Assembly: GCA_032433595.1 (NCBI GenBank) | Contig: JASWJB010000004.1 | Span: forward strand, 310,001 to 374,000 | DNA: 64,000 nt | Direction of reading: 5' to 3' | From: Conoideocrella luteorostrata | Lineage: Eukaryota > Ascomycota > Sordariomycetes > Hypocreales > Clavicipitaceae | Part shown: positions 12,000-54,203 of the stretch, in pieces | Layout: the number at the start of each line of letters is the position of its first letter | How positions within the stretch are numbered: position 1 is the first letter of the stretch | Program-made: the position numbers and the translations under genes | Notes under the pieces: generated by a model | Told to the model about the DNA's origin: nothing | The model's database searches: none | The model's input: only the letters and a program-made list of their open reading frames with translations

Positions 12000-13954
12000 A
12001 TGAATCGGGCGGAGCTCCGGAGACGTGGCGGCGGCGGAATCGCATCTCGTCTATTCACACGTCGAGCATGCCTTGTGCTATTGCTCGCCAAGTTCAGCTC
12101 TATTCTCGCCAGCACTTATACCATTAACTGTCCGCTTCCAGGCAGCCACACAATACCGGAGCCCCCGACTATCAATTGGCAATATGAGAACATTACAGCA
12201 TGCCAAGAAGCGATACGGTTATTCCTGCCTTGGGATTGTCTTCCCGGCAATACCCAAGGTGGGATTGTCACCTCGCGCCAGCTGAACTTTACCTGTCTCT
12301 GCGAATCCAGCGCCTTCATCCAGCGCACCGCCATGGACTGCTACCGGAATGGTGCTGGAGACGGCTGCAAGGATCTCGGGATCCTGGCTGAGTTTTGGGA
12401 GCGGAGGTGCCGGGACTTCCCTACGGCTACATCTGTCGCTCGCAACACGACTGAACTTTTTAGCATCGGGTCGGGGGGCCAGCAGAGAAGTACCTGCGTT
12501 AACCCCCCCAAAGATTGTGCCCATGCGCAAATAACCATCACCACGCCCTTCAATCCGACCCCGACTCCATCTGAGCCTGTTCAAAACGGTACAACGTCCA
12601 AGAAAGATGGCGGAGGAGGAGGCAAGCCCGAAGATTGGCAAATTCGGGTCGGGGTCGGGGTCGGAGTCGGAGTCGGTGTTGGCATCCTCGGCCTCTTGAT
12701 CATAGCCGTTTTACTGAAGCCTAGATGGAGGTCTAAACTTTGCTGTTTTCCCCCTTATATTGATGCCCGCCACTCGATAAAGTCGGACATTACTTTGATG
12801 AGGCATTGGGCTTCTTTGATGAGGCATTGGCCATCTCTGCAGATCCAAGATGCTCCAGCGGATGCAAGGGAGGCTGATAACTGGCTTCGGGACGACGACA
12901 AATTCGGTGCAGTCAGGTCATTGTTTGCTGCGATTAGACCCATGATGGGAGACGAACCGGTCAAGATATGCGTGATAGACAGCGGCGTCGACCTCGGACA
13001 TCCCGCATTCAAACCTTACATCGACCGTGGACAAATATCGGCTGAGTTTTGCCGCGACTTTGTGCAGCCCGACGATACCAACTCCAGTTCGTCGACTATC
13101 CAAGACAGCACTGGCCACGGGACGCAATGTGTCCACCTAGTCTTGCAAATCTGCGAGACTGCCAAAATCTATGTGGCACGAGCATATGAGAGAGACCGAG
13201 ATGACCAACACGCTGCCGAGCGTGTTCTACAAGTACGTATGCGTGCACAAGTTCCCCGCGCAAATAGCAGGTAAAGGTTTCAAACCTCTAACATAAAAAG
13301 GCTATCCGCTGGGCGATACAGACCAGGGTGGACGTCATCGCCATGGCGTTTTCGTTCCCTCAGCGCAACGACGAGATGAGCGACGCCATTCGGGAAGCAA
13401 CCAATCAAAATATCCTGGTGTTTGCCGGCGCCTCAGATAGATATCACGTTGGGAACCCGGTCGGTTACCCGGCGTCGGATCACAATGCTATTGGCGTTTA
13501 TCCTTGCAGAGCCGACGGCGAGCCATCAACTACTGTAGCGCGGGAAGCAGAGCGGAACATCATGACACTTGGTGATGGGGTGGACGCTGCATTTCTCGAG
13601 GGTCAACAAAGACGCTTCAGCGGATCGTCGCCCGCGACAGCAATTCTCGCCGGCGTGGCTGGTCTGTTGATTACCTGCTCTGTAATAGCCCCCAGTCTGT
13701 CCGCCAGCGTCGGACAAGAGTATCAAAGGGAGCAGAGTTTATGGATGCTGCTCCGTACACAAAAGGGAATGGAGGCTATCTTGAAGAACACTATGGCGAC
13801 GCAGTGGGCTTCTCTGGAACGCCCAAAGCATTATTATGTTCGGCCATGGTTCCTTTTTTCAACGCCGAGAGAAGGTCAAGAAACTATTCACCATCTCAGG
13901 ACAATCTCCAGGCGAATCCTGGAGTCACTTGAAGCGGCGGTCGGGACGGGCTGA
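12000..13954 (+). CDS. Receptor-like membrane-anchored subtilase (S8)
   Basis: Two exons (12000-13232, 13301-13954) give 628 aa. Order: signal peptide or signal anchor (about 20-38); ectodomain to about residue 195 with ten cysteines and several N-glycosylation sites; Pro/Thr and Gly linker; one membrane span (about 217-238, a VG repeat then ILGLLIIAVLL); basic stop-transfer KPRWRSK; juxtamembrane duplication; C-terminal subtilisin-like domain. Catalytic residues are D327 (VIDSGVD), H373 (GHGTQ) and S521 (SGSSPATA). The usual oxyanion-hole Asn appears to be D457 (GASDR). The topology puts the ectodomain outside and the protease in the cytosol. The short S8 domain resembles those fused to fungal NLR proteins more than secreted proteinase-K types. 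The gene is convergent with the gasdermin-like gene 223 bp away, which suggests the two work together in regulated cell death. I do not recognise the ectodomain family. Confidence 0.8.
12645..12680 (+). repeat. GGGGTC-type hexanucleotide run in the membrane span
   Basis: About six degenerate copies of a GTCGGG-type unit encode the alternating Val-Gly at the start of the transmembrane helix. Slippage here would change helix length two residues at a time without breaking the frame. Confidence 0.75.
12794..12835 (+). repeat. 21-nt tandem duplication, juxtamembrane
   Basis: Two adjacent copies of a 21-nt unit starting TTTGATGAGGCATTGG encode a repeated LMRHW segment just inside the membrane. The copies differ at only a few bases, so the duplication looks recent. 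Confidence 0.8.
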
Positions 13955-14177
13955 ATGGGCAATTCTACTTACGAAAAAGAATTAAAAAAAAATCACGCAG
14001 AATGTACAATATGTACTGATAATAGTATGTACGTTTTGGTCAATCTTGTTGGCCTTCCGTGCTTGTACGCTCGTCTGTGGCCAAAAAGAGGATCGATCTA
14101 ACTAATTAGCCGCCGGACCGCCTCCAGCTTGTCATGATAGACAGCCTTGTGGCTCACCAAGAACAAACCTCTGTTCA

Positions 14178-14996
14178 CTACTCAACCATGCCGTCTTCGT
14201 CGCTCACAAGCGCCGTGCCCACAACATCGGTCCCAATAATGGGAACATCCTCCATTCTCTCCACTTGACGCTGCCCAGGAGCTGCCCGTCCGCCATCCGC
14301 CGCCTCGGTATCGCCTCCTGTGTAAACAACAGCCGGGCGCACCTTGAACATGTACTTGATCTCATGCAGCCGATACGCGAAAACAAAGTCGTCCATCTCC
14401 GTAATCGTCTCATCACGATTTAGCCTACGACCCCAAGTTGCCTCCAAGCCCATATCAATAGGAACGTTATATCCCGATCCGCTGAGGGACATGTTGGCCC
14501 CGCGCGATGCCTCTTCCCGGGTCTCGACGTGCATCCTGGCCCCGCGTGCGATCTTGACTCCCGTCACCAAGAACACTGACTTCCCCCACCATTTATCTGT
14601 TCCGCCACATTTGGGGCCGCGACGACTTGGCGGACATAATCCAACTGCGGTATGAAACCGTCGCACTCGATCGCCTCGAACGCCCACTCTCTCTTGACCT
14701 CTTGGCTGGACTTGGCCAGCAGATCAACGGACAGTACGGCCGCTTTGGTTTTGGCCCATGAGTCGAAGGAGCTGGCGAGACTTTGCTCTGTATTCAGTGA
14801 GACTCCTTTCTGCACGCCTTGGTCTCGGATATAATCATCGGGGATTTTAACGAAGCTCGATTCTGTTGAGAAGAGCGCGTCTTCTGGCTGATGGGCATTC
14901 TTAAGTACTTGGCCGAGTCGCAGCATTCGGTCAGGTGTCCATATTGGCGATGTGGTCCAGATCCAGGTCTTGGCTCTTGTCAAAGGTGAATGCAGC
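14178..14996 (-). pseudogene. Gasdermin-like (RCD-1/HET-Q1 type) gene with two frame breaks
   Basis: Three minus-strand segments read as one protein family. Segment A (about 14996-14940) includes AFTFDKSQDL. Segment B (about 14940-14600) includes QPEDALFSTESSF. Segment C (about 14600-14178) includes KSVFLVTGVKIARGA and FVFAYRLHEIKYMF. A and C share a frame; B is offset by one base. The breaks lie at 14930-14945 and 14585-14600, and neither has room for an intron. Segment C ends with a tail of about 40 residues of the kind that autoinhibits fungal gasdermins until a neighbouring protease removes it. The family call rests on remembered strand and motif patterns and on the adjacent subtilase. 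The start is unresolved, as an in-frame stop lies just upstream of segment A. It could be a true pseudogene or carry assembly errors. An intact family member would form membrane pores in cell death. Confidence 0.55.
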
Positions 14997-19403: not shown

Positions 19404-22216
19404 ATGCGCGTGGTTCTGGTAAGCGGCGGTGTCATCTCCGGCGTCGGAAAAGGTCAGTTCTATCCCGTCGCACCCTAGCATTGCCTCGAACAAGCGATGA
19501 CGACCTTTGCCGCAACCGCCCGACACTACGACATCGACATTGGACAACATTTGCTAACCAGGTCTTCCTGATAGGCATTATTGGTATGATATTGCACTCG
19601 GTCGATTCGCCTTCTACGTCGGGCTAACATATCCTTCAGCCTCCTCCGCTGGCCTTTTGCTAAAGACAACTGGACTTCGAGTAACGGTATGAATGGTTTG
19701 GTTCATTGTCGCAATTAGATTTGACTGACGGCATGGATGTAGGCAATTAAGGTAATTGGCTGTGTTCCTATCACTGCCGCATATGTGCTGATTAATTAGA
19801 TTGATCCGTACCTCAACATCGATGCCGGCAGTAAGCAAGAAATCCGACCTGATCCACGTTGCCACGTGCATAACTGACGAGAATTGCTGCAGCCTTGGGA
19901 CCTCTTGAGTATGCATACTTGATTGACTCCTTGCAGATAAAGGCACATTACTGACCAGTTATAATCAAGACATGGTGAATGCTTTGTTCTAGCCGATGGT
20001 GGAGGTACGTCTCCCAACCAACTCCATGAACACGATACCGAGCCGACCCTCGACAATGTACGACCAACTAACCATGTAAAGAATCCGATCTCGACTTGGG
20101 GAACTATGAGAGGCAAGACAGATCACGGCTATCCTCATTGCATATTCAGGAGCTAACCGATTTTGGGCAGATATCTCGGCATTCAACTTTCCCGCGACAA
20201 CAACATCACTACCGGAAAGATCTACCATGAGGTCATTTCCCGCGAGCGAAAAGGGACATACTTAGGGCGGACTGTGCAAGTTGTTCCCCATATCACGGAC
20301 ATGATCGTGGAATGGATTACTCGAGTTGCCAAGATCCCAGTAGATGACTCTGGCGAGGAACCGGATGTTTGCATCAGTGGGTCTCAAGCCAGCCTATTTC
20401 AAATGTTGTCAGGTACTAACCTTCCTCTCAGTTGAATTGGTACGTCGCAATAATTTGTGATTCGAACTCGGGTTGCTAACGGAGCAATTCGTAGGGCGGA
20501 ACTATTGGGTATGTATACGTTTTTCTTTTTTTTTCTTTTCCAAGGCTTTCGTTGGATTTTTCGTCATTAATCTAGTGCGAAATGACTAACCATTGACTAG
20601 TGACATTGAGTCAGCGCCTTTTGTAGAAGCGTTGGTGCAGCTAAGACACAAGCTTAACAGAGATCCGGGCTCATCCTTTTTTAATATCCAAGTCTCATTT
20701 GTTCCACTGTGAGTAGTTAGTGGCCGTTGATCCGAGACTCTGTTACTGGATTGACAACTCAGCCTCTCTGCATGTCCTGTAGCTAATGCACCAACCTAGG
20801 ATACACGGAGAGGAAAAGACGAAGCCAACTCAACATGCTATCAAGCAGATGCGAAGCGCTGGTTTAATTCCAGATCTGGTAAGCAAGATGCGTCTTTTTG
20901 AGCGCCATTCTTCTCTTAACAGGTTTGCAGATTGCGTGCCGATGTGATACCACCCTTGTAGATGGTACCATCCGGAAAATTGCGTCGAGCTGCCAGGTCG
21001 ACTACGAGCAAGTTATTGGCGTGCACGATATGGAAACTGTCTACCAAGTCCCCCTACTTCTTCATGAACAGGGACTGCTCCAGCGACTTCGAACTGGCCT
21101 GGAATTGGATAAGTTGTCCTTGTCCCCTGCTGTGGCCGCAAATGGGGAGGCTCTCTGGGACCTGTGGAAGAAGACCGTCATTGTTCCGAAGGATACCGCT
21201 CCAGTGCAAATCGCATTGGTCGGAAAGTATACCAGCATGCTTGACTCGTATCTTTCCGTCATAAAAGCGCTAGAACACGCCGCTATGCATTGCCGTCGGA
21301 AGTTGAACTTGGTACCTGTTGACTCGGAGCATCTGGAGGCCATTACCCAGAAACAGGAGCCTGCCAAGTACCATCGAGCCTGGCAGACTGTTTGTGAAGC
21401 CAATGGTGTTATAGTACCAGGTAAGTAACGCCAGGCAACGCCTGATGTGACCTGTTGAGACTAATGAGGCTATACAGGTGGCTTTGGCTCAAGAGGAACC
21501 GAGGGTATGATTGCTTGCGCAAAATGGGCCCGTGAAAATAAGCGCAACTATCTAGGCATCTGTCTTGGCATGCAGGTTGCCACTATTGAGGTTTCTCGAT
21601 CGCTCTGCGATCGCCCCAAAGCTACGTCAGAAGAATGGGAAGATGATCCCAATTCCAAGGACCCGGAGAACTACTCGGTTGTTTTCATGCCCGAGTCATC
21701 TAAGGAGTAAGTTTGTCATTTATCGGTTCAGCGCTTAGTTGATATGCTAAGTCGGAGATTTAGGCAGTTGGGAGGCACAATGAGACTTGGTACACGACCA
21801 AGTTTGTTCCAGCCTGGCAGCGAATGGAGCAAATTGCGAGCTCTCTACGGAGGCGCTTCCGAAATCCACGAACGTCACCGACATCGCTACGAAATTAATC
21901 CTGAACGTGTTGAGGAACTAGAGAAGGCAGGGCTTCACTTCATCGCCAAGGACGAAACAGGCAATCGTATGGAAGCCTTTGAGTTGAAGGATCATCCATT
22001 TTATGTTGGGTAGGTTGCACTCTGCCAAACAAGCTTGGGCCTGCAGTTACTGACAGAACACACAGCTTACAAGCCCACCCTGAATTCCTCAGTAAGGTCA
22101 CAAAGTCTTCGCCGCCTTTCCTTGGCCTGGTAGCGGCTAGTGCAGGAATACTTGACGAGGTCATCGAGGAGGTGAAGAAGCAAGGGGCCATGACGAATGG
22201 GGTTGCAGAATTTTAG
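19404..22216 (+). CDS. URA7: CTP synthase (17 exons)
   Basis: Makes CTP from UTP, ATP and glutamine, the last step of pyrimidine nucleotide synthesis in the cytosol. Exons: 19404-19452, 19575-19583, 19640-19686, 19743-19751, 19800-19830, 19893-19908, 19970-20004, 20082-20112, 20171-20376, 20432-20439, 20495-20508, 20601-20708, 20800-20878, 20931-21420, 21478-21706, 21764-22009, 22066-22216. They join in frame to 585 aa, the normal length. The synthetase domain begins [12 protein letters not shown] and has [19 protein letters not shown] and ELGGTIGDIES. The glutaminase domain has GGFGSRG, the nucleophile C406 (GICLGMQ) and QAHPEF. Three exons are 8-9 nt and two are 14-16 nt. Intron 8 (20113-20170) is GC-AG. 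Symbol by homology to yeast. Confidence 0.93.
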
Positions 22217-42626: not shown

Positions 42627-43571
42627 CTAGTGAGGCTGATTCCATCCAGGGTTCGAAAAGCTCGAGAAAAGACCTACCCAATCAAAGGAAGATTTCTCAC
42701 TGGAGGGTACATTTTGGCTTGCGGGTACTTTTTCACCTGTGGCTGGTTTTCCCCCGACTATGACTGCGTGTACTGCAACTCCTCTTGGTCCGCATTTGTT
42801 CCAGTCGAAACCCTTTTCGCGTGTTACTACATGTTCAGCAGTAACCTCCTCAAGCTTTTTATCATCTATCAGGCTCCTGATGCTTTTCTCGATCATGAAT
42901 TGCATTCCCTCCCCTGTTTGACCGAAGCCTGGCGCGATCATCCCTGCAGTGGCTTCGAACTTCTCTTTGACGTGGTAGATATGAAAGGTGTTGGATCTAT
43001 CGACCCCAGTAAGTGGCCAAGCGGGGTAAGGGTTGAGACTTGAGGGTGGTAAAGCCCTTGAGCCGTAGGAAGTGCCTAAAATAGCAAGGAAACTCCCTTG
43101 AAAAGAAAAGAATTAATAAGCAGTCCTGAATTCCCGTCGAAACTCTATATAATATGTGTTTTACATACCATTCTCTGATCCGAAACGATCTAGGGATGTA
43201 CCTGGAGGTATATCCGTGATGCTGCTTTGACTTGTACCGTTGGTGAAGTTGGAAAATCCATTTGCATAAGGATAGATCCATTGCTTGTTCTCATTTTTGT
43301 ACTTCGATAATAAAGCACCAGGTTTCATGCCCGCGAGAGGGTCGTAATCTCGCAATATGCAGTCTAAGATACGGTTCTTCGGAGATGGACGAGTCTCTTT
43401 GGTCGCATTGCTTCCGTGGAGTATGAGTCCAAGATTCTCATCGCCGCAGATGTAGTCTTTTGATTTTTCGGCGTTGTTTGCAGTGCCTGTACAATCATAG
43501 TGCGACGCGGGAGCGGCGCTGGTCAAGGTAGACCCAAGAAATAAAGACAGAAAAGCGTGTGAGACCTTCAT
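42627..43571 (-). CDS. Secreted TNT-domain NADase
   Basis: Two minus-strand exons (43571-43169, 43096-42627) give 290 aa. The intron has a GTATGT donor and a TTCAAG acceptor; this acceptor restores SFLAILGTS, whereas a later TTTTAG would delete it. A signal peptide (about 1-19) is followed by a Cys-containing N-terminal part and then the TNT fold first known from the tuberculosis necrotizing toxin. Family hallmarks are WIYPYANGF, LDRFGSENG and APGFGQTGEG. R129 and Q194 are the expected catalytic residues. Known fungal members sit on the cell or spore surface and hydrolyse NAD+ to nicotinamide and ADP-ribose. No immunity protein is seen nearby, which fits a secreted enzyme. A TATA-like box lies about 130 bp upstream (43702-43710). 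Confidence 0.83.
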
Positions 43572-45179
43572 GTTGTTATAGTAAAGAGAGTGGGCGAAAA
43601 TTTCAAGGTGAAGGGAAGAACTAAACGTTGTAAAAACGTTTTTATTTTAAAGCTGAAGGACTTTTGTAATACCTAGATTTTGGTAGGCAACCAGCGGATG
43701 CTTTATATAAGTCTGGTTACCCGTATGGAAATGATAAACAGAGTATTTCTGAAGCAACAATGGGTAGAGAGTCATATAATAAAACGGTTTCGTTGATAAC
43801 TAATGTTAAGCCATAAAGTAATTAAATTGCATTTACGAACTGATTACTTCTGTCGCAAGGTGTAGGTGGTCGTAGTGGCTCCGGCATAGAGCCTTGCTCC
43901 TTATCTGTGACAGCGTCAGCGTGCGTGAAATTTTCCTGCACACCACATTCGGTTGGCCTTCTGTATTATAGCTGAGTAGTCTCTAGTGAGTCTCCACTTC
44001 ATTAAAATTTTAAAAACAAAGTTAAACACTTTGTATCAGTCTAAAATTAAGCTATTATTTGCCCCATAAGGTTTCAAGTACATGAATCGTTTCTGCAACA
44101 GCCCGCATTGAACGGTCGTTAAGAACCAGGCAGTAAGACCGCCAGCCGATACTTTTACCACAAGTTTAACAATGGCAGAGATGAACACTACCTAAAACGG
44201 CTATAGCGATCGCAGTCCCTGTTTTCACAGTAATGCCAAAACAGTTTACACAGTCCAGGTAGACTAGTCCTCAATCCGTGAGGCTGACTCGTCGGCATTG
44301 CTGCTCATTAAGATTAATGGTCACATGGTATAGCTATTGTCTCGAAGAACCCGTCAACGGAGGATTCCACGGGAATGTCTCAATTTGGCGGCGCAATATC
44401 GTATGATAGAACTCACGACCTGACAAAATGCCCCAAATCAGTAGCTAGAAATTATCCATAAAAAGAGATCGTATTCCTCGTCAAATAGCTAGAATACAAG
44501 GACAACTCCGCTACGTCAGGGCAACAGCTTCCGTAGCCGCTCACATTGTGACAGCTATTCAGTATTAATATTGGGGTTTAGATGCTGGAAGATGTTGCCC
44601 ACGCTAAACTGCACAAGTAAGCAAGTATCCTAAACCCAATCACCGAAGTTACTGCGAGACGGGTTATTTTAACCGATCAATTGAGTCTCACGGAAGCATT
44701 AGAGATTCTTTTGCATCACAGTCTTATCTGACTAATGTACACCTAAATACTATGTTTGACGTGGTGCTGGTTTACCTAAATATTCTTACGCCATGATGGC
44801 TGTCTCTGGGGCATTCGTTCCCGGAACAGGCCGGGGTGTTTATTTAGTATGCTCCAATGGCGTCAATGAGGTTTTCTAGTGTGATTATGGCATTAGGTCG
44901 GACGACTGAGATGATACTAGATTTCACGGGAAGTCCAAGAAGGGAGTGTAATACGGTCCGACCAACTGCTAACTGACAATTTTCAGCACCCTTACAATAA
45001 GCACCCTCGATTTTATTTTCGACACCTTGCTCGTACTATAACTTTCTAACGCTGCACCAAGAGCACGGAGTAATGGCACCCGAATCGATAGTCAATACGT
45101 TGACTCAAGTATATAAAAGTTGACGAAATTGGAATTTACTCTGCGATTGATAAACTATTGTCTGCTACTACTGTCCACA
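43572..45179. other. Intergenic region, AT-rich
   Basis: No supported gene in 1.6 kb. The composition is AT-rich with no long open frame on either strand. One near match to TACGGAGTA lies at 45064. Confidence 0.6.
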
Positions 45180-46961
45180 TTAGTTCTCTGTTGTCTTGAG
45201 CAGCATATCGTCCATCATTGCCTTCTCAATGGGCAAGACCAAATTAAGGAAAACTCCTAGAACCGCCGCGATGATAAAGGGTGTTGTGATGATTAATTGG
45301 ATGCTTTGAAGTAAACCCTGAAGGGCGACATTCGAACCTTGATAGCTGATGACTTGATCGAACCATGTGGGCGTGACTATGTCTATGAAACCAAATGCTA
45401 ATGCGACGATTAAAATGAAGCGATTGCGGCGGGTGAAGTCAACCATTCCGAGGACCCGAATGCCAGCCACCGCGATGGTGCTGAAGAGAAACACCTGCAT
45501 ACCCCCGAGGACGGATGCCGGCATAGCAGTAAATATTGCGCCAAATTTACCTATAATACCCATAAGAATCAGGAAACCTGATGCTGCCCAGCCCGCACGA
45601 CGAGACTAGAATACAAAGTCAGTAACCTATGAAACAGGTGGTAAGAAACGAAAACCTACCGCGCATCCGGTAACTACAATCGTACCGTTGTTGCCTGCTT
45701 GAGCTACCATGGGAAGCGCCGTGCCAAACGCACTGAGCAAGCTGCCGATGCCATCACAGAGAATGCCCCCCTGAATGCGCGAATTGAACTCGGTCCCTTC
45801 GATGTTGAGCCCCGAGATCTCCGCTGTGGCGAGGATATCAGGCATGCAAGCTATACCTTGAACAATGAACAGGACTACCAGGGGCAGCACAAGAGCTCCG
45901 TCAACACTGAGATGGAAAGTATGTCTCCACAGGAAGGTGGCATATGGGGCATTGTTAATATTTTCCGGAGACCAGTAGCCTGTTGCTGCCGAGATGGCAC
46001 ACCCGACGCCTAGTCCGAGAACAATGGCCGCAGACCTCATAAGCGGCGACCCGAATTGCTCGATGATGACTATGCTAAAGAAAACGCTGAATCCAAGCCC
46101 AATCAACCGTGGATGGGCCCAGGGAAGCGCATTAGGAGCATCGATATTTGGGCAGAGCGCATAGAAACCTTGGCCGTTACTACAGTTGACGGACCCCGCC
46201 CAGTTGTTCATCCCGTTCCTAACCAAATAAACTCCAAGAAGCAACAACAAAGAACCGGTTACGACTTTCGGGAAAGCCCGGTTGAGGATATTTGGTGGCA
46301 CCATGGACATGGCAATCTGTACCCAAGCTGTGCAGAGGATCGTGCCGAGAAGTGAGCCCCAGGCTTCCGGGCATGGGAGCCGTGTGCCGTCCTCGGCCAC
46401 TGGACAGGTGCCGTTCTGATATCGCATGTTGGTATAGGCAAAAGCGATGGGTATAATGTCAAACGTAGGCCCTACAACGCTAAGGAGCCCGGTCCCGACA
46501 TAGAACGGCGTGCCTCTTATGTGTAGCCGCGTTACTTGCAGAGCCGTCGCAATGCCCGTGGTAATAAAGCAGGCGGCGATGAGATACGCGACTTGGTCCG
46601 CCTCGAGATGAAATGCACCTACAGCAAGGGCCAGGGGCGGAGAGACGATGGATCCAACCATGGTCAAGGCATGCTGGAAGCCCAAAAGAAGCGTGAGCAG
46701 TATGGGGACTCGATCATGCAAGCCATAGAATGGAATCGCGCTGTCCTTGTACTTGCGATTGAAGGGATAGATGTTGGGCGTCGCAAGGTACCAGTAATCA
46801 TAATCACCTAGCCATGCATCTTTGGACAGGATACATGAAGAAAACCGAGCTGCTCGCTCACGCAACGTGAGTTGCAAGGGATGGCATACTTGTGTATCAG
46901 TTGAGGCCGGGTGAATGACACTAGGAGTAGAAGGAGTCTTGATGTCCGCCGGGTGGGCCAT
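45180..46961 (-). CDS. NAT/NCS2 nucleobase permease, UapA-like
   Basis: Plasma-membrane proton symporter of the nucleobase-ascorbate family, which imports xanthine, uric acid, uracil or related bases. Two minus-strand exons (46961-45660, 45605-45180) give 575 aa with about 14 spans. Family features include the N-terminal DYDYWYLATP, LLGFQHALTMVGS in TM1 and GYWSPENINNAPYATFLW. The signature normally QNNG....TR reads GNNGTIVVTG here: Gly423 replaces the Gln, and Gly432 the Arg, that set substrate binding in UapA. The substrate probably differs from xanthine/urate. It shares a 442-bp promoter with the amidohydrolase gene, so uptake and deamination are probably co-regulated. Confidence 0.9.
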
Positions 46962-47403
46962 GACGAGTGTCTGCGGTCGCTTGATTTGAAATGGTGTTGA
47001 TTCCTCTTCCGGGTTGCCGGCTCATAAGCTCTTATGAGACGGTGGTGAAGTGTCTTGCCACGGATGCTCTGTAGTGACTTTGTCAGATATGGGGAACGCC
47101 AAACTTAGGCTGTTATCTACTGTCGCGGCTACGAGATAGCTCTTTAGGAGGTTACCGCGCATAATAAACGTATCCGTATCCATCAGCAACATGTTGATGA
47201 TTGCTGAGGAGGGAAAACTAGCACAAGATAAGGCCGAGATCTGTCGTACGACGAGTCGGCCTAGCGGCAACACGCCAAGATTGGCGTACGATAATAATAA
47301 CTTTGCAACAATGTATTTTACATGTGGCAGAGTGTGCTGCGGCTCCAATATAATCCAGCGCATCTTTTTCTTTTGCTTGCTCCTGCGTTTCACCGCAGCA
47401 AAA
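46962..47403. promoter_or_regulatory. Divergent promoter of permease and amidohydrolase
   Basis: The two start codons are 442 bp apart and face away from each other. The interval holds a strong inverted repeat (47021-47038), two GATA-type sites (TTATCT near 47111 and GATAAG near 47226) of the kind bound by the nitrogen regulator AreA, and a CT-rich stretch before the amidohydrolase ATG. Sites are seen; binding is inferred. Confidence 0.55.
47021..47038. promoter_or_regulatory. Inverted repeat, candidate operator
   Basis: CTCATAAG-CT-CTTATGAG: perfect 8-bp arms around a 2-bp spacer, about 60 bp upstream of the permease ATG. The half-site CTCATAAG recurs at 48994-49001, between the 3' ends of the amidohydrolase and first dioxygenase genes. 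It could be a site for a dimeric regulator. Confidence 0.45.
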
Positions 47404-48917
47404 ATGACCGTCAAGACCCCATCGGAGGTGGTTGTCTTCACCCACGCCACTATCATCACCCAAGACCCCCAGCGAACAATTTGGCTGGATGCTACAATTG
47501 TTGTGCAGGGTGATCGCATCATAGCAATTGAGAAGACTTCCCAGATTGTTAGCAGCGGCACACTGCCCAGCGACGCACGCTTTGTGGATTGTTCAGGCCG
47601 TATTATCATCCCCGGACTGGTCAATACGCACGCTCATGCAGCGCAATCTCTTCTCCGGGGCCTCGCCGAAGATGTTCCTCTGCACTCGTGGCTCTGCGAT
47701 GTTATCTGGCCGCTGGAAGCTCATTTCGATGGAAAAGATGGCTACCTGGCAGCGAGACTGACAATTGCGGAGATGCTGAAGAGCGGCACGACTTGTTTCC
47801 TCGAAGCCATGCTGACCCATCGCAGCGGTTTTGATAACGTAGCAAGGGCGGTGGAGGAGATGGGCATCAGAGCGTGTCTCGTGAGTAACGGCGTTACATC
47901 CTCTCCCGTACACACGTGCATGCGTTCTGACTTAGATGGCAGGGCAAACTAGTGAAAATGACAGAGCCTGACTCGAATGATGGTTTAAGTGACGCGAGGG
48001 ATCGAGACGCTGCACACATGTCCATGGACACTATGCTCGCAGCTCATGCAAAGTATCATGAGTCCTGCGAAGGAAGGCTCCAGGTTTGGGTTGCCCTAGG
48101 AACACCTCGTGGATCTTCGGAGGATGCATATCGAGCTGCCGGCGCTGTATGCGAGACACATGGACTGGGGATCACTATGCACTGTGCTGAGACACCAAAG
48201 GACCGGCTATTATACCACGAAGCTTACGGCTGCAGTCCTGTTGAGTTTTGCAAGCGCACCAAACTAATCAGCAGCGGCAGAAAGGCAGTGCTAGCACACA
48301 TGGTAAACCTCGATATTGAGACCGACCTTGCACTGCTTCGCGAAACCGGCGCCACCGTTTCACACAATCCAGCAAGTAACTGCAAGCTTGCTTCGGGTAT
48401 TGCTGCGATACCTCAAGTGCTGGAGGCGGGGGTACGTGTGACACTAGGGACTGATGGCGCCCCTTGCAACAACACATATGACATGCTCCAAGAGATCCGT
48501 CTTGCTGGTCTCCTTCATAGCGGCGTCCAGAAAAAGGCGGGCATCTTGCCGGCCGAAGATCTCTTGGCTATGGCAACTATCCGTGGTGCGGAAGCGCTGG
48601 GTCTGGATAAGGACATTGGCAGCCTGGAGGTGGGCAAGAAGGCGGATTTTGTCATTCTTGACGTTACCACATTGGGATGCGCTCCTTTTGATGCCGCACA
48701 AGTCTTGGATGGCGGGTTTGACCCGGTCACGACGGTTGTCTATTCATGTACCGGTGCAAATGTCGAGTCCGTCGTTGTTGATGGTCAAGTCTTGGTCGAG
48801 AACCGCGTCCTGCTACACGTAAGCGAGCAGGACATTATCGAAGACGCAAAACTTGCCATCCAACGCATACGCGCGAGATCAGGTTTCCGCGGCGCGGCAC
48901 TGAGGAATTATAGATAA
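47404..48917 (+). CDS. Amidohydrolase / deaminase, ATZ-TRZ type
   Basis: Metal-dependent hydrolase related to guanine/8-oxoguanine deaminase, S-adenosylhomocysteine deaminase and chlorohydrolases. Two exons (47404-47880, 47943-48917) give 483 aa. Metal and catalytic residues are in place: H76 and H78 (NTHAHA), H239 (TMHCAET), H278 (AHMVN) and D330 (LGTDGAPC). The N- and C-terminal strands forming the composite beta-sandwich (VVVFTHATIIT and KADFVILDV) are present. It probably removes an amino group or other leaving group from a nucleobase or triazine-like ring. The divergent nucleobase permease supports this. The exact substrate cannot be told from sequence. Confidence 0.87.
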
Positions 48918-49284: not shown

Positions 49285-50323
49285 CTAATAAGACTGACTG
49301 TATCTGAGTGAGAGATGCTCTAGTACGGTATACTTCGACGTTCCTGAGCCATCAAGTGGTTCAACAAGAAAATCCGGATTTCCGTCAAAGAAAAATGGAA
49401 CCGAGTACCTCTGTTGGCCACTGGTGTTTATCACGCGATGGACGTTGGACTTATACTGTCCACTGGTCCAAGTCTCCAGCAAATCTCCAATATTTACCAC
49501 AAATGCATCGCTCCGTGACGGTACGTCAACCCATTCCTTCTTGGACTGATTCAGAACCTGGAGACCTGAGTTCCCATCTGTGAGCAAGATCGTGATGGCA
49601 CCAAAGTCGGTGTGCGCACCGGCGCCAACCAAGTCATCGGCATCAATATCAGGGTGGGGCGGGTAATGGAGCAGCCTGGCCGGGGCAATAGGTTCGCGGC
49701 AGAATTCCGCCATCATGTTGCTATTGCTAATGTCGAGACCTCTTACCAGAAGGCCCATAAGATGGACCGCAAGCTCGTACATTGCCGTGTAGTATGCAAG
49801 TAGTGGGAACTTGAAGTCTTCTTCTGGCAGCAGGCTCGTGTCGGGCCAAATATTTGGTTTTTGAAAGGGCTTGTCGGCTGACTGTAGCTCTGGCATCTCA
49901 CGATGGTAGAAGTATCCCTAGAAGTCGGATAATTTTAGTCTACTTTGAACGGTCGAAAGTCATGTCGCAGACTGAATCAGACGTGTCGCACTAATTTACC
50001 TCTTTTAAATCCGGCTTTTTGCCAGCTTCAAGTACCTGGGACCCAAATGCCTCGTAGCCAAGACCTGGACCGCCCTTCAATTTTAACTTTTCTTCTTGCG
50101 GCAGAGAAAAGAGCTTTTTAGACGCGCAAAATACAGAGTCCTGCATGGTACGTGATATGCCGTGGCCGACTATCTGAAAAAAGCCACTTGTCGAACAAGC
50201 TGTACGGATCTGGCTGACAAGGGAGTCGACTTCATCTGATCCCCCGCCACATAGGTAAGCGCTCAAGTCCACCACCGGAATGCTGAACTCTGGCTTTGTG
50301 CCATCCTCGGGTGCCGACGCCAT
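49285..50323 (-). CDS. 2OG-Fe(II) dioxygenase A (IPNS-like)
   Basis: Two minus-strand exons (50323-50000, 49917-49285) give 318 aa. The N-terminal DIOX_N part (IPVVDLSAYL, GFFQIVGHGI) is followed by the double-stranded beta-helix. Iron ligands are H210 and D212 (AHTDFG) and H268 (NVHRV). The 2-oxoglutarate-binding Arg-x-Ser is in QQRYSVPFF. The isopenicillin-N-synthase-like superfamily includes thymine 7-hydroxylase, so oxidation of a nucleobase is possible in this cluster; other small molecules cannot be excluded. The ATG at 50323 was taken because it directly precedes the conserved N-terminus; an upstream in-frame extension lacks family similarity. It is divergent from the Zn2Cys6 regulator. 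Confidence 0.87.
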
Positions 50324-50709
50324 GAGAAATAAAAATTTGCAGGGTAGGATAGACAAGACAAGAGCTTCTCCAGGTACTATCTGCCACCTCGCTTGAGGAT
50401 AATGTAAGCACGAAGAAATTGGGATCGTAGCTGACATTTAACGAAGAAACCAATTGCATCGCCATTGTGGTGGATCTGGCATAGGAGTCCTTGAACCGCT
50501 GATAGCGATGGATATGGCGTGCGATTCCGGGGCCGGCCGATTGGAACCGACGACGTATCGGGGGCCAGTGGATTCGGACGACGGCTTATCGTACATCATG
50601 TAGATAACGTACCTGGCGTCGCAAACCCGCCTTGTTCTTATCGCTCATTTATAACAATAGCGCAAATATCGATCGGAATTCGTACACCATTGCTCGCTGG
50701 TGCACCCAC
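50324..50709. promoter_or_regulatory. Divergent promoter of dioxygenase A and Zn2Cys6 regulator
   Basis: 386 bp between facing-away start codons. A GC-rich patch with overlapping CGG/CCG triplets (about 50526-50541) is the kind of element Zn2Cys6 dimers bind, so self-regulation is possible. No copy of the 47021 palindrome was seen here. Confidence 0.4.
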
Positions 50710-52665
50710 ATGCATGTCGCGATGGCGAGCTGTACCCGCCGCGAGACACGCAGAAAGCGAGAGACATGCACGGAGTGTTCTCTGCGGCGTCAAAGATGTG
50801 ATCGTCAAATCCCGTGCGGGCGATGTGTAAGGAGGGGTGTCGCTGAAAGGTGTACCTTGTCTTGGGACAAGGCGTACGATGAAGTCGATCATCGCGGCCA
50901 TCGGGGCCAAATGCGTGTGCGCAGTGGCCCTGGCGACAATTCCCAATCAGTCGACCGGCAGAATCATCGCAGACATGATGCCTTGCCAATCTCTCCCAGC
51001 AGCCGTGATGCTGATTCCGTGGCGGGCTCGCCTCAATTCAGAGTTACCTCGGGATCCTGGACTTCTCATCCAAGGCTGCAGTACTCTTTTACTTCTCCGG
51101 CCCGTCCTCGCAACCGCAAGTCATCGGGTCGGAGCGGAGAGGCCGGCCACGACGTACTCTTAGCTGCTGTAACAGACACCGCAGCACCGTACGAAGATTA
51201 CCTCCAAGCCTTGTTACCCTCCAAGCATCAAATCTATTACCTTGTTGACTACCACGAACTATACCTGCTGTGGTATCATGGGACCTATCACGGCCCAACG
51301 TTCCGGGTTGAGCTCCAAAGCGCTATGCGAGATGACACAGAGGGCGCAAATCTAGATATCGCGCAACTTGACCTCCAATGGATGGCTCTCCTCTTCTCCA
51401 TCATGGCCGCGAGCCTCGTTTGCAGCCCCAGTGCCCAGATAGAGGAGTGGGGGTTTCACTGTGCTGAGGTATCAGAACTCGCGTCTGCTTGGTTTAAAGC
51501 ATGCATCAACTGTCTGAATAGAGCCAACTACTCGGCCAGGCGGAGCATCTACTCTGTACATGCCATAGCCACCTTGGCCATGTCAGCGCATGTCCTTGAC
51601 CAATCTCCAGAGCTCTCAGTTCTCCTTGGAGCTGCTACTCAGATTGCCCGGAGCCTGGGGCTGGACCAGTTAGACGATGACGCTCGTGTTGACAGCGTGA
51701 CAGCTACATCGTCGCACGCAGACAGGCATAAGACACTGCAACGAGAGACTGGGCGGCGTTTGTGGCTCCAACTCTGCGTGCAGGACTGGATTTCCCTTCC
51801 GTTTACTGAGAGCCACACCATCGATCCGCTCCAATTCACAACCTGCAAACCGGCAAACAGGAATTTTCTAACCATGGATCCCATCGATGAGGTTTGTCCC
51901 ACGTACGTCAGCTACACGAACTATCTGTTTCAGATTGCCAAGCTGATGGCTAAGCATCACGAAGCGGTGCTTCGGTCGTCCACTTTGCTGACAAAGTACG
52001 AGCACACACTTGACTATGACTACCGACTGCGCACGCTCGCAACCAAAGCTATGCCTCGATACTTCCACGTCATGGAACCAATTGACCCTGCATGGCCGGA
52101 CTGGATACCATGGGCGCGCAGAAGCCTAACAATCTGCTTCGCGCACAAGATGATCATGATCCACCGCGCGTTTCTCCGGAAAAGCTTTGGGAATGCTGCC
52201 TTTTCTGCAACACGCTCTACTTGCTTGGCGGCAGCAAAGACTATTCTCAAAGAGGCACAGACCAGAGACATAGAAGGCCCAACTATTTGGATCGACGAGG
52301 CTTATTGCGCTTCAGCAGGCGTTGTCATCTGTCTAGACATACTTCACCGACCTCCAACAGATGCGCTTTTCCAGACCCACGTAGATCTCGTCAGAGAATG
52401 CATCAGCCGGTTGCACAGATGCAGCTGGAGTGCTGTCGCCGTACGCGGAGCTCGTGTGCTGACGATTCTCCTGGACAAGGTAGGGACCGGCGAGGGGTCG
52501 ACAGCTGACATCGAGCTCTCACAGGTGCTCGAGATGACTGGGTCCCATCTACACGATACCGAGACGGTTCTATTGGATGATTTTGCTGAAGTATTTCCTC
52601 CGCCTGTTGGTATGCGTAATAAGTACCTTTTTGAGGAGCTGTTTCAGATTGAGCACGTACCATGA
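50710..52665 (+). CDS. Zn2Cys6 transcription factor, cluster regulator candidate
   Basis: Intronless gene of 651 aa from the ATG at 50710 (or 647 from 50722). The N-terminal binuclear zinc cluster fits Cx2Cx6Cx5Cx2Cx8C: CTECSLRRQRC, then IPCGRC and a final Cys after VRRGVAER. A linker of about 100 residues leads to a fungal-specific transcription factor domain (about residues 170-450, with LLFSIMAASLVCSP and RETGRRLWLQLCVQDW). The longer open frame upstream starts only at a TTG. It is placed between two 2OG dioxygenase genes and divergent from the first, so it probably controls the surrounding nucleobase-type cluster (inference). Confidence 0.88.
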   Translation: MHVAMASCTRRETRRKRETCTECSLRRQRCDRQIPCGRCVRRGVAERCTLSWDKAYDEVDHRGHRGQMRVRSGPGDNSQSVDRQNHRRHDALPISPSSRDADSVAGSPQFRVTSGSWTSHPRLQYSFTSPARPRNRKSSGRSGEAGHDVLLAAVTDTAAPYEDYLQALLPSKHQIYYLVDYHELYLLWYHGTYHGPTFRVELQSAMRDDTEGANLDIAQLDLQWMALLFSIMAASLVCSPSAQIEEWGFHCAEVSELASAWFKACINCLNRANYSARRSIYSVHAIATLAMSAHVLDQSPELSVLLGAATQIARSLGLDQLDDDARVDSVTATSSHADRHKTLQRETGRRLWLQLCVQDWISLPFTESHTIDPLQFTTCKPANRNFLTMDPIDEVCPTYVSYTNYLFQIAKLMAKHHEAVLRSSTLLTKYEHTLDYDYRLRTLATKAMPRYFHVMEPIDPAWPDWIPWARRSLTICFAHKMIMIHRAFLRKSFGNAAFSATRSTCLAAAKTILKEAQTRDIEGPTIWIDEAYCASAGVVICLDILHRPPTDALFQTHVDLVRECISRLHRCSWSAVAVRGARVLTILLDKVGTGEGSTADIELSQVLEMTGSHLHDTETVLLDDFAEVFPPPVGMRNKYLFEELFQIEHVP

Positions 52666-53204
52666 ATGTCGTGTATTCAGACACGCCATGCAGTGAGACA
52701 CGTAGATTAATAAAGAAACAAAAGATAGCAATGCTATTTTTAGTTCAAGAATCGTATTGCTGCGCCAATTGCAACCCGTTTGGCACATATGACTGCATTT
52801 GAACCTGGCCATATGCCCTAGTTTTTGTTGTATTATATCACGTCCTGCTCCGGCAGACGTACTTGATAGCTTGAACTTAGGTAAACCGTAATGATGGTCG
52901 TACGACTGCTGCGGAGTAGCGTGATTAGCGGTGCAGCTGGCCAACTGCGGGGTATCTACTCAGTGGCAAAGGTTTCGTACGACGGCGTCAGCGACAAGCG
53001 ATACTCAATCAGAACCTCTAAATTGCTCCTCTTATCGACTATGTACGCCGTTGATTACCACAGCTGCCGAGGACAGGTCGAGTTTTGGGTTACCTAGAAG
53101 GGAGCCTTTAAGAGAGCATTATGTAGCATGTTGACCACCCCATCGCAACCAAACACAGCAAAAACCTGATCTGTCCAATATTGCGACACAGATTGACCAG
53201 CAGA
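52666..53204. other. Intergenic region, promoter of dioxygenase B
   Basis: 539 bp between the regulator stop and the dioxygenase B start. No gene. One GCGGAGTA near match lies at about 52913. Confidence 0.5.
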
Positions 53205-54203
53205 ATGGCGCTCACAAAGTACTCCAGCCGCTCCATCCCGACCATCTCCCTGGCTGACTTTGACCAGCGCATCGGGGAGATCACCACGCAACTCGTTGAT
53301 GCCGCTGAAAATGTTGGCTTCTTCAGCATAATTGATCACGGCATTGCACGCGCCGACGTGGACAGGATGTTCGATGCGTCCGCCAACTTCTTCACCCTCC
53401 CCGACGACGTCAAGTCGCAGGTGCCGTTCTCAGCCACCGAGAATGTCGGCTGGGAGAAGAACGCCCAGATCCGACCCTCAACCGGGACATATGATCGCAA
53501 GGAGTCATACCAGTTACAGTTTAACAGCAACATGGACGCTCGCTGGCTGCCCGAGTCCACTCTTCCAGGCTTCCGATCTACCGCTACGACCTTCATGCAC
53601 CAGGCCCAGGCCGTGTCCGAGAAGCTCATGGTCTGCTTCGCACGCGGCCTTGGCTTCCCGGATGATTACTTTGTCACCGCGCATGACGTTAGCAGAGGCG
53701 ACTCGCAGACCGTCGCGCGCCTGCTGCACTACTTCGCCACTCCTGTTGTCAACGACGGACAAGTGTACCACCGCGCAGGCGCGCACACGGACTGGGATTT
53801 TGTGACGCTGTTGTTCCAGAAGGCGGGCCAGTCTGGATTGGAGATCTGCCCAGGCCGCGAGGCGACCTCGTCCTTCGGCGAGAACGACGTCTGGACTCGC
53901 ATTGAGCCTGAACCGGAGTCTGACGCCATCATCTGTAACATCGGCGACCTGCTCATGTCCTGGTCCGATGATCGCTTCAAGTCTACGCTGCACCGTGTCA
54001 AGGCTCCCTGCGAACCGGGGGACTTCTATGGAGAGAGATATAGCATTGCCTTCTTCAACCAGCCGTGCAAGGCTGTGGAAATTCAGGGCCGCAAGAAAAA
54101 GTACCCGCTTGTGACGGGCGCTGAGTTTACGCGCAACGCCATGCAGAGAAACTTCAAGGCCATCTTGCAGGCGAAAGAGAAGCTGGCGGCTGCGGGAGCC
54201 TAG
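53205..54203 (+). CDS. 2OG-Fe(II) dioxygenase B (IPNS-like)
   Basis: Intronless, 332 aa. The N-terminal part (IPTISLADF, GFFSIIDHGIA) precedes the beta-helix core. Iron ligands are H194 and D196 (AHTDWD) and H263 (TLHRV); the 2-oxoglutarate Arg-x-Ser is in ERYSIAFF. It is a paralogue in type, not a close copy, of dioxygenase A, and unlike that gene has no intron, so the two were probably not made by a recent duplication. Two such oxygenases beside a permease and a deaminase suggest successive oxidations of one imported ring compound. The start at 53205 is the first ATG; the frame extends upstream only with TTG. Confidence 0.9.
   Translation: MALTKYSSRSIPTISLADFDQRIGEITTQLVDAAENVGFFSIIDHGIARADVDRMFDASANFFTLPDDVKSQVPFSATENVGWEKNAQIRPSTGTYDRKESYQLQFNSNMDARWLPESTLPGFRSTATTFMHQAQAVSEKLMVCFARGLGFPDDYFVTAHDVSRGDSQTVARLLHYFATPVVNDGQVYHRAGAHTDWDFVTLLFQKAGQSGLEICPGREATSSFGENDVWTRIEPEPESDAIICNIGDLLMSWSDDRFKSTLHRVKAPCEPGDFYGERYSIAFFNQPCKAVEIQGRKKKYPLVTGAEFTRNAMQRNFKAILQAKEKLAAAGA

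What the first reader, a model, noticed from the sequence alone, without database searches (positions are those of the whole stretch)
12000..14996. Subtilase and gasdermin-like gene side by side: a candidate fungal pyroptosis-like module
The minus-strand gene at 14178-14996 has segments that resemble the fungal gasdermin family (RCD-1, HET-Q1), and the next gene, tail to tail 223 bp away, encodes an S8 protease. Established knowledge: fungal gasdermins are often encoded beside a protease (subtilisin-like or CHAT) that cuts off a short inhibitory C-terminus, as HET-Q2 does to HET-Q1. The gasdermin-like gene here ends in just such a short tail. The pairing is strong context for both calls. Inference: the two genes form, or formed, a cell-death switch.
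Basis: partly seen in the sequence, partly recalled or inferred. Interest (0 to 1): 0.88.

Follow-up and report, generated by a model that had tools for sequence, protein, structure and literature searches.

The report
Fungal gasdermin with membrane-anchored protease partner
Next to a (probably broken) fungal pore-forming death gene sits an intact protease gene whose protein appears to reach through the cell membrane, so it may have been a cell-death switch that reads signals from outside the fungus rather than from inside.

Summary
The minus-strand gene at 14178-14995 is a fungal gasdermin (HET-Q1/RCD-1 family); its tail-to-tail neighbour encodes a subtilase (S8) with Asp/His/Ser in place. 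The genome (Conoideocrella luteorostrata, a scale-insect pathogen) has at least 13 gasdermin loci, 12 within 10 kb of an S8 match, so the pair belongs to the known fungal gasdermin/S8 two-gene clusters. Corrections: (1) the gasdermin is in two frame pieces, not three, with one frame change near 14.6 kb and no in-frame ATG before the conserved start: probably broken in this strain. (2) The protease gene is intact and not a plain subtilase: one open frame carries an N-terminal hydrophobic segment, a Cys-rich domain with sequons, one likely transmembrane helix, then S8. Of 12 related S8 genes tested, 9 have DUF7580, 2 have ankyrin frames upstream, 1 nothing recognised. (3) Its S8 groups with a PNP_UDP_1-S8 protein and with the S8 of cluster C203, whose gasdermin is also the nearest in-genome one. 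Best reading: a gasdermin switch whose sensor became a receptor-like membrane protease. Known kind, new sensor variant; topology, cleavage and stimulus are inferred.

The parts
12000..13232 (+). protease gene, coding exon 1 (411 codons: N-terminal hydrophobic segment, Cys-rich domain, likely transmembrane helix, first half of S8)
   Evidence: no stop in frame against 15 and 16 in the other two frames; 0 of 5000 shuffles fully open, longest 287 codons; PF00082 E 5.8e-8
12066..12113 (+). N-terminal hydrophobic segment (residues 23-38), signal peptide or signal anchor
   Evidence: 19-residue Kyte-Doolittle windows starting at residues 23-24 reach 1.55-1.69 after an Arg-rich start; weak, a Lys lies inside it
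12114..12647 (+). predicted extracellular Cys-rich domain (residues 39-216): 10 Cys, 4 N-glycosylation sequons
   Evidence: no Pfam family; in-genome search gives only itself and two matches at E 0.087 and 4.2
12648..12716 (+). likely transmembrane helix (residues 217-239), followed by K and PRWRSK
   Evidence: hydropathy up to 2.81 per 19 residues; 5 K/R and 1 D/E in the 22 residues after residue 240, 4 K/R and 3 D/E in the 20 residues before the helix; helix 224-239 in a low-confidence model
12960..13675 (+). S8 peptidase domain (interrupted by the intron); Asp 12978-12980, His 13116-13118, Asp at the oxyanion-Asn position 13436-13438, Ser 13628-13630
   Evidence: PF00082 in both exons; positions; alignment with 12 paralogues
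13233..13300 (+). 68-nt intron, GTACGT...CTAAC...AAAAAG
   Evidence: sequence; in 9 of 12 paralogous S8 genes the Asp/His part and the Ser part also lie in two frames that meet before the AI-x-WA motif
13301..13954 (+). protease gene, coding exon 2 with stop codon
   Evidence: PF00082 E 2.1e-8
14603..14986 (-). fungal gasdermin, N-terminal piece (profile positions 5-131)
   Evidence: 65.1 bits against a profile made without the window; 30% identity to P0015
14181..14609 (-). fungal gasdermin, C-terminal piece (profile positions 134-245) with a tail of about 54 residues (5.6 kDa) after the conserved VFAYRLHEIKY region
   Evidence: 72.3 bits; tail length and mass

Best explanation
The pair is (or was) a fungal gasdermin/S8 death switch with an unusual sensor. 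The intact plus-strand gene makes a receptor-like protease: a Cys-rich, probably glycosylated domain outside the cell, one membrane pass, and an S8 protease inside. A signal at the cell surface (shown: none; inferred) would turn on the protease, which would cut off the short C-terminal tail of the gasdermin, and the gasdermin would then perforate the plasma membrane, where its activator already sits. In this strain the gasdermin reading frame is broken, so the pore-forming arm here is probably silent while the sensor is kept. Shown: family of both proteins, clustering, intact protease frame with catalytic residues, broken gasdermin frame in this assembly. Inferred: membrane topology, cleavage, stimulus.
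For: Gasdermin identity. Clustering in this genome: 12 of 13 gasdermin loci within 10 kb of an S8 match, 10 of 13 within about 2.1 kb (distances for 10 of 13; C171, C5 and C71 read). Tail-to-tail in 6 of the 10 pairs measured. Co-divergence: the window S8 groups with P0042 (support 0.996) and then the S8 of C203 (0.981), and the C203 gasdermin is the nearest in-genome gasdermin for both window pieces. Different N-terminal parts inside that clade: PNP_UDP_1 in P0042, DUF7580 beside the C203 S8, Cys-rich domain plus membrane helix in the window. Continuous frame across the fusion. The charge flanks favour the S8 side inside; and if both hydrophobic segments enter the membrane, the domain between them is outside and the S8 domain cytosolic whether or not the first is cleaved. 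A weak in-genome match (C186, E 0.034) overlies the membrane helix and basic flank of an unrelated frame, as expected of a real membrane helix. The published assembly is Illumina at 51.6x with five Pilon rounds, which makes a false indel unlikely.
Against: No homologue of the ectodomain was found, so the fusion rests on one genome. The N-terminal hydrophobic segment is weak. No dedicated signal-peptide or topology predictor was available, and hydropathy alone is not decisive: frames upstream of paralogous S8 genes reach 2.27 and S8 core helices 2.47, against 2.81 for the window helix. GC by codon position in the ectodomain part is less coding-like than in the S8 part. The ectodomain model is poor (mean pLDDT 42.8). 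The S8 oxyanion Asn is Asp, as in 2 of 12 paralogues. A broken gasdermin means the pair may no longer work together. The N-piece model is weak (pLDDT 54.5); its top Foldseek matches are RCD-1 but none is significant (best E 0.44).
Confidence: 0.6

Rival explanations
1. Ordinary cytosolic HET-Q2-like protease: the real protein starts at an internal Met downstream of the membrane helix, or the upstream part belongs to another transcript; the long frame is accidental.
For: No homologue of the part ahead of S8 was found. The S8 genes of paralogues have cytosolic-type modules: DUF7580 in 9, ankyrin in upstream frames of 2, of 12 tested. GC at codon positions in the ectodomain part (0.53, 0.56, 0.59) is less coding-like than in the S8 part (0.59, 0.42, 0.56) and close to that of the 600 bases upstream (0.54, 0.56, 0.54).
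Against: 411 codons open, 0 of 5000 shuffles match; the upstream part has Cys, sequons, a hydrophobic start and a strongly hydrophobic helix with a basic C-side flank, a combination unlikely in non-coding sequence.
Confidence: 0.2
2. Dead relic: both genes are remnants of a lost cluster and neither has a function now.
For: Gasdermin frame broken and no in-frame ATG; the oxyanion Asn of the protease is replaced; birth-and-death evolution is reported for fungal gasdermins (PMC10197012 section 15). A second in-genome gasdermin (C71) has a stop inside, and the one of C105 also lies in two frames.
Against: The protease is free of stops over 628 codons with a clean intron and D/H/S in place. Asp at the oxyanion position also occurs in two paralogues (C369, C123) and, from recall, in the active convertase PC2.
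Confidence: 0.25
3. The gasdermin is intact: the frame change is a short unrecognised intron or an assembly error, and the start lies in an upstream exon.
For: GT..AG pairs 44-47 nt apart give open frames scoring up to 121.4 bits, and five upstream ATG exons are possible on paper. The gasdermin of C105 also lies in two adjoining frames, perhaps through an intron.
Against: Those donors (GTCGTC, GTCGCG) are not fungal-type (recalled), the intron would remove a conserved helix, the 8 aligned in-genome gasdermins are single open frames there, and the published assembly was polished five times with Illumina reads.
Confidence: 0.2
4. The S8 gene is a secreted or vacuolar protease unrelated to the gasdermin; adjacency is chance.
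For: It has an N-terminal hydrophobic segment, as secreted subtilases do.
Against: Under random placement of 88 S8 loci, 9 or more of 10 gasdermins within 3 kb of one has probability about 1e-16 (simple model; the ten include C105, first seen in an S8 locus and later found independently, and leave out C171, C5 and C71). In the tree the window S8 sits with gasdermin-linked or PNP-type S8 (0.981), apart from the clade of four other subtilases of the genome (0.958), one of them only a fragment.
Confidence: 0.03

Closest known systems
HET-Q1/HET-Q2 of Podospora anserina
   Same: fungal gasdermin with a short C-terminal tail, and an S8 protease that is reported to cut it (PMC12881547 section 20)
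   Different: het-Q1 and het-Q2 are idiomorphs at one locus, here the two genes lie side by side; here the protease has a predicted ectodomain and membrane helix; here the gasdermin frame is broken
Q2L protease/fGSDM two-gene clusters (Clave et al. 2022, as summarised in PMC10197012)
   Same: adjacent gasdermin and S8 protease, the protease being multidomain with a variable sensor part
   Different: the modules named in the sections read of the two reviews are ANK, TPR, WD40, NLR and kinase-like; no membrane receptor form is mentioned there. The original paper is not held, 18 architectures are reported and cover about a third of the proteins, so I cannot say that none is membrane-bound
RCD-1-1/RCD-1-2 of Neurospora crassa
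   Same: gasdermin family
   Different: RCD-1 acts by pairing of two alleles, not by proteolysis
Bacterial gasdermin/protease defence systems
   Same: gasdermin clustered with a protease; profile match to bacterial gasdermin 7n51
   Different: no PADLOC gasdermin model matches the window pieces

Membership tests
fungal gasdermin (fGSDM) | sequence profile match over the pore-forming domain | tested here: met
   65.1 and 72.3 bits, positions 5-131 and 134-245 of 277; family profile finds HET-Q1 and RCD-1
fungal gasdermin (fGSDM) | gasdermin fold | tested here: inconclusive
   only the N piece was modelled, pLDDT 54.5; Foldseek ranks RCD-1 first to seventh of 43, best E 0.44
fungal gasdermin (fGSDM) | short C-terminal tail of about 5 kDa | tested here: met
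   54 residues, 5.6 kDa after the conserved core, against about 5 kDa for HET-Q1; the cut site is not known here
fungal gasdermin (fGSDM) | intact open frame | tested here: not met
   one frame change near 14.6 kb and no in-frame ATG; a non-standard intron is not excluded
HET-Q2-like (Q2L) S8 protease | S8 domain with catalytic Asp, His, Ser | tested here: met
   oxyanion Asn is Asp
HET-Q2-like (Q2L) S8 protease | encoded within 10 kb of a gasdermin gene | tested here: met
   223 bp; 12 of 13 gasdermin loci of the genome within 10 kb of an S8 match
HET-Q2-like (Q2L) S8 protease | groups with gasdermin-linked S8 proteins rather than other subtilases | tested here: met
   with P0042 and C203 (0.981); four other subtilases form a separate clade (0.958; one row is a fragment), but deeper nodes have low support; HET-Q2 itself was not available
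HET-Q2-like (Q2L) S8 protease | cleaves the neighbouring gasdermin | not testable with these tools
   needs an assay
CFEM domain | Pfam PF05730 match | tested here: not met
   no match up to E 1, and the place is not among the 25 CFEM places of the genome at E <= 0.01; the CxC...C...C...C spacing only recalls it (recalled)
single-pass membrane receptor | hydrophobic start, outside domain, one membrane helix, cytosolic enzyme | tested here: inconclusive
   hydropathy, charge and sequon evidence; no topology predictor or experiment

The most novel reading that the evidence does not exclude
Fungi have a cell-surface route to gasdermin death: a type I membrane receptor whose cytosolic domain is itself the gasdermin-cutting protease, a one-protein receptor-and-caspase-like switch, made by putting an extracellular Cys-rich domain and membrane helix in place of the usual DUF7580, ankyrin or PNP module.
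Probability: 0.35. Interest if true: 0.82.

Novelty: new variant of a known kind. Interest (0 to 1): 0.52.

Why it matters
What activates the putative sensors of fungal gasdermin and related death pathways is called a major open question (PMC12881547 section 20). None of the sensor types named in the sections read of two reviews is described as membrane-spanning, and LRR membrane receptors are reported almost entirely absent from fungi (PMC2939053, abstract and passages). A membrane-spanning sensor would say that at least some of these switches read the cell surface and would give an isolated ectodomain with which to look for ligands.

Tried and rejected
Three-segment gasdermin: rejected; the stretch at 14999-14934 in the third frame does not score. 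CFEM membership of the ectodomain: not met. In-genome relatives of the ectodomain: C106 (E 0.087) has a stop inside and lies beside repetitive sequence, C38 is at E 4.2; C186 (E 0.034, two stops) is a match to the membrane helix and basic flank of an unrelated frame; none taken as a relative. Homologue search with the whole protease gave two S8 proteins, one bacterial and one unnamed, among 7993 capped candidates; the S8 region alone gave 4. PDB search with the ectodomain: two chance-level matches. Structure of the ectodomain: too poor to search. NCBIfam and PADLOC: no gasdermin family for the window pieces. Intron that would explain the frame change: possible only with non-standard donors. 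Synteny in related fungi could not be tested: the window's own genome was the only fungal genome that could be searched here. Gasdermin row dropped before the count of 13: C130 (E 0.148, stop inside). One S8 paralogue locus (C303) was not scanned for a sensor module; for C105 two upstream frames were scanned. That paralogous S8 genes lack a membrane helix was not tested.

Literature: searches showed, among the papers listed, none on a membrane-anchored protease beside a fungal gasdermin; some searches listed only 15 of 116, 20 of 32 and 20 of 536 papers. The key paper (Clave et al. 2022, PNAS) is not held, so absence from print is not shown. Seen: PMC12881547 (passages and section 20), PMC10197012 (passages and section 15), PMC2939053 (passages with abstract), PMC12352038 (part 1 of 2 of the whole text); all other papers by listing only.

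Full report
Where it is. The window is contig C4, 310001-374000, of a 46.4-Mb genome in 620 contigs. Two gasdermin proteins of that genome are database records of Conoideocrella luteorostrata (P0003, P0005; contig lengths 80,237 and 22,599 agree with C203 and C492). The published draft of that species is an Illumina assembly at 51.6x polished five times (PMC12352038). It gives 864 scaffolds and 47.39 Mb, so the held copy is smaller than the published figure.

The gasdermin. The frames at 14995-14567 and 14723-14181 (minus) match a fungal gasdermin profile of 35 rows built without the window with 65.1 and 72.3 bits, at positions 5-131 and 134-245 of 277; the best of 19,993 fragments from 300 base shuffles reaches 5.5. 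A profile of ten rows, two of them window pieces, finds HET-Q1 (2.1e-23), RCD-1-2 (1.6e-19), RCD-1-1 (6.9e-19) and bacterial gasdermins (5.7e-7, 1.1e-6) in the PDB. Against single sequences the match is weak: C piece to RCD-1-2 E 0.047, N piece none, and no Pfam, NCBIfam or PADLOC gasdermin model rings. A model of the N piece is poor (pLDDT 54.5) and its Foldseek list is headed by RCD-1 without significance. So the family rests on the profile evidence, which is strong.

State of the gasdermin. The reading frame changes once near 14.6 kb, and the N piece opens after a stop with no ATG before its conserved TWIWT-like start. Introns with non-standard donors could in principle bridge the change, at the cost of a conserved helix. 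The 8 aligned in-genome gasdermins are single open frames; two others are not: C105 lies in two adjoining frames and C71 has a stop inside. The most likely state of the window gene is broken in this strain.

The protease. The plus-strand gene has two exons, 12000-13232 and 13301-13954, split by a 68-nt intron with a fungal-type donor, branch site and acceptor (the consensus is recalled). In 9 of 12 paralogous S8 genes the Asp/His part and the Ser part lie in two frames that meet at the same place. Asp 327, His 373 and Ser 521 are in place; the oxyanion Asn is Asp (residue 457), as in C369 and C123 among 12 paralogues. Ahead of the S8 domain, in the same frame, come a hydrophobic segment, 178 residues with 10 Cys and 4 sequons, a helix with hydropathy up to 2.81, and a basic flank (5 K/R, 1 D/E, against 4 K/R and 3 D/E before the helix). 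As a control, upstream frames of paralogues reach 2.27 and S8 core helices 2.47, so hydropathy alone does not decide. The frame is open over 411 codons, never seen in 5000 shuffles; codon-position GC in the ectodomain part is not clearly coding-like. No Pfam family matches that part, no other place in the genome resembles it convincingly, and single-sequence folding gives no usable model.

The setting. By gasdermin searches alone the genome has 13 gasdermin loci: C4 (window), C203, C291, C221, C269, C23, C492, C30, C88, C71, C171, C105, C5; one weaker place, C130, was dropped. Twelve of 13 lie within 10 kb of an S8 match (none is listed on C71), and 10 of 13 within about 2.1 kb. Distances were computed for 10; those of C171 (about 2.0 kb) and C5 (about 6.8 kb) are read from the coordinates. 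Six of the ten measured pairs are tail to tail. Of 12 related S8 loci tested for a sensor module, 9 have DUF7580 in the same frame (2) or an adjoining upstream frame (7), 2 have ankyrin repeats in a frame 0.7 and 1.0 kb upstream (C123; C369, the latter below Pfam's cut-off), 1 (C105) nothing. Where the module is in another frame, that it belongs to the same gene is inferred.

Co-divergence and different sensors. In a tree of 19 S8 sequences (one of the four outgroup rows is a fragment; deep nodes are weak) the window S8 joins the Penicillium angulare protein P0042 (0.996) and then the S8 of C203 (0.981). The C203 gasdermin is the best in-genome match of both window gasdermin pieces. The two halves of the cluster thus appear to have the same nearest in-genome relative, as expected of a working pair. 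Within this one S8 clade the N-terminal parts are PNP_UDP_1 (just above Pfam's cut-off), DUF7580, and the membrane form.

How it would work. Established knowledge (PMC12881547 section 20): HET-Q1 loses about 5 kDa from its C-terminus, likely cut by the S8 protease HET-Q2, which frees a pore-former. Here the tail is 54 residues, 5.6 kDa. Inference: the ectodomain binds something outside or in the wall, the cytosolic S8 is activated, the tail is cut, and pores form in the same membrane. If both hydrophobic segments enter the membrane, the S8 side is cytosolic whether the first is a cleaved signal or an anchor.

Novelty. The cluster is a known kind. The sections of two reviews that were read list repeat, NLR and kinase-like sensors; a membrane receptor form was not met among the papers listed by the searches made, but the primary survey could not be read. 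I therefore grade it a new variant of a known kind, with moderate interest because the topology is inferred from one genome and the executioner is broken.

Noticed in passing
window 42630-43646, minus: Two frames of a secreted-looking gene, the one at 42630-43112 with a TNT (NADase toxin) domain, PF14021 E 1.9e-18; resembles fungal surface NADases (recalled).
   Followed up: no
window about 20783-22216, plus: Pieces that read like a CTP synthase in several frames (by eye); the one scanned matches PF06418 only from position 207, so a truncated duplicate or a gene with undetected 5' exons.
   Followed up: partly
own genome, contigs C203, C291, C221, C269, C23, C492, C30, C88, C105, C171, C5, C71: At least 12 further gasdermin loci; one (C71) has a stop inside and no S8 match listed on its contig.
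   Followed up: partly
L034, L030, L038, L028, L032, L036, L029, L035, L031: DUF7580 is the usual module in or just upstream of the S8 genes related to the window's (9 of 12 tested), 8 of these 9 near a gasdermin within 5.5 kb and C5 at about 6.8 kb.
   Followed up: partly
window 45630-48917 and 49288-54200: Xanthine/uracil permease next to an amidohydrolase, followed by two 2OG-Fe(II) oxygenases around a long frame that reads like a Zn2Cys6 regulator (domains; regulator by eye).
   Followed up: no
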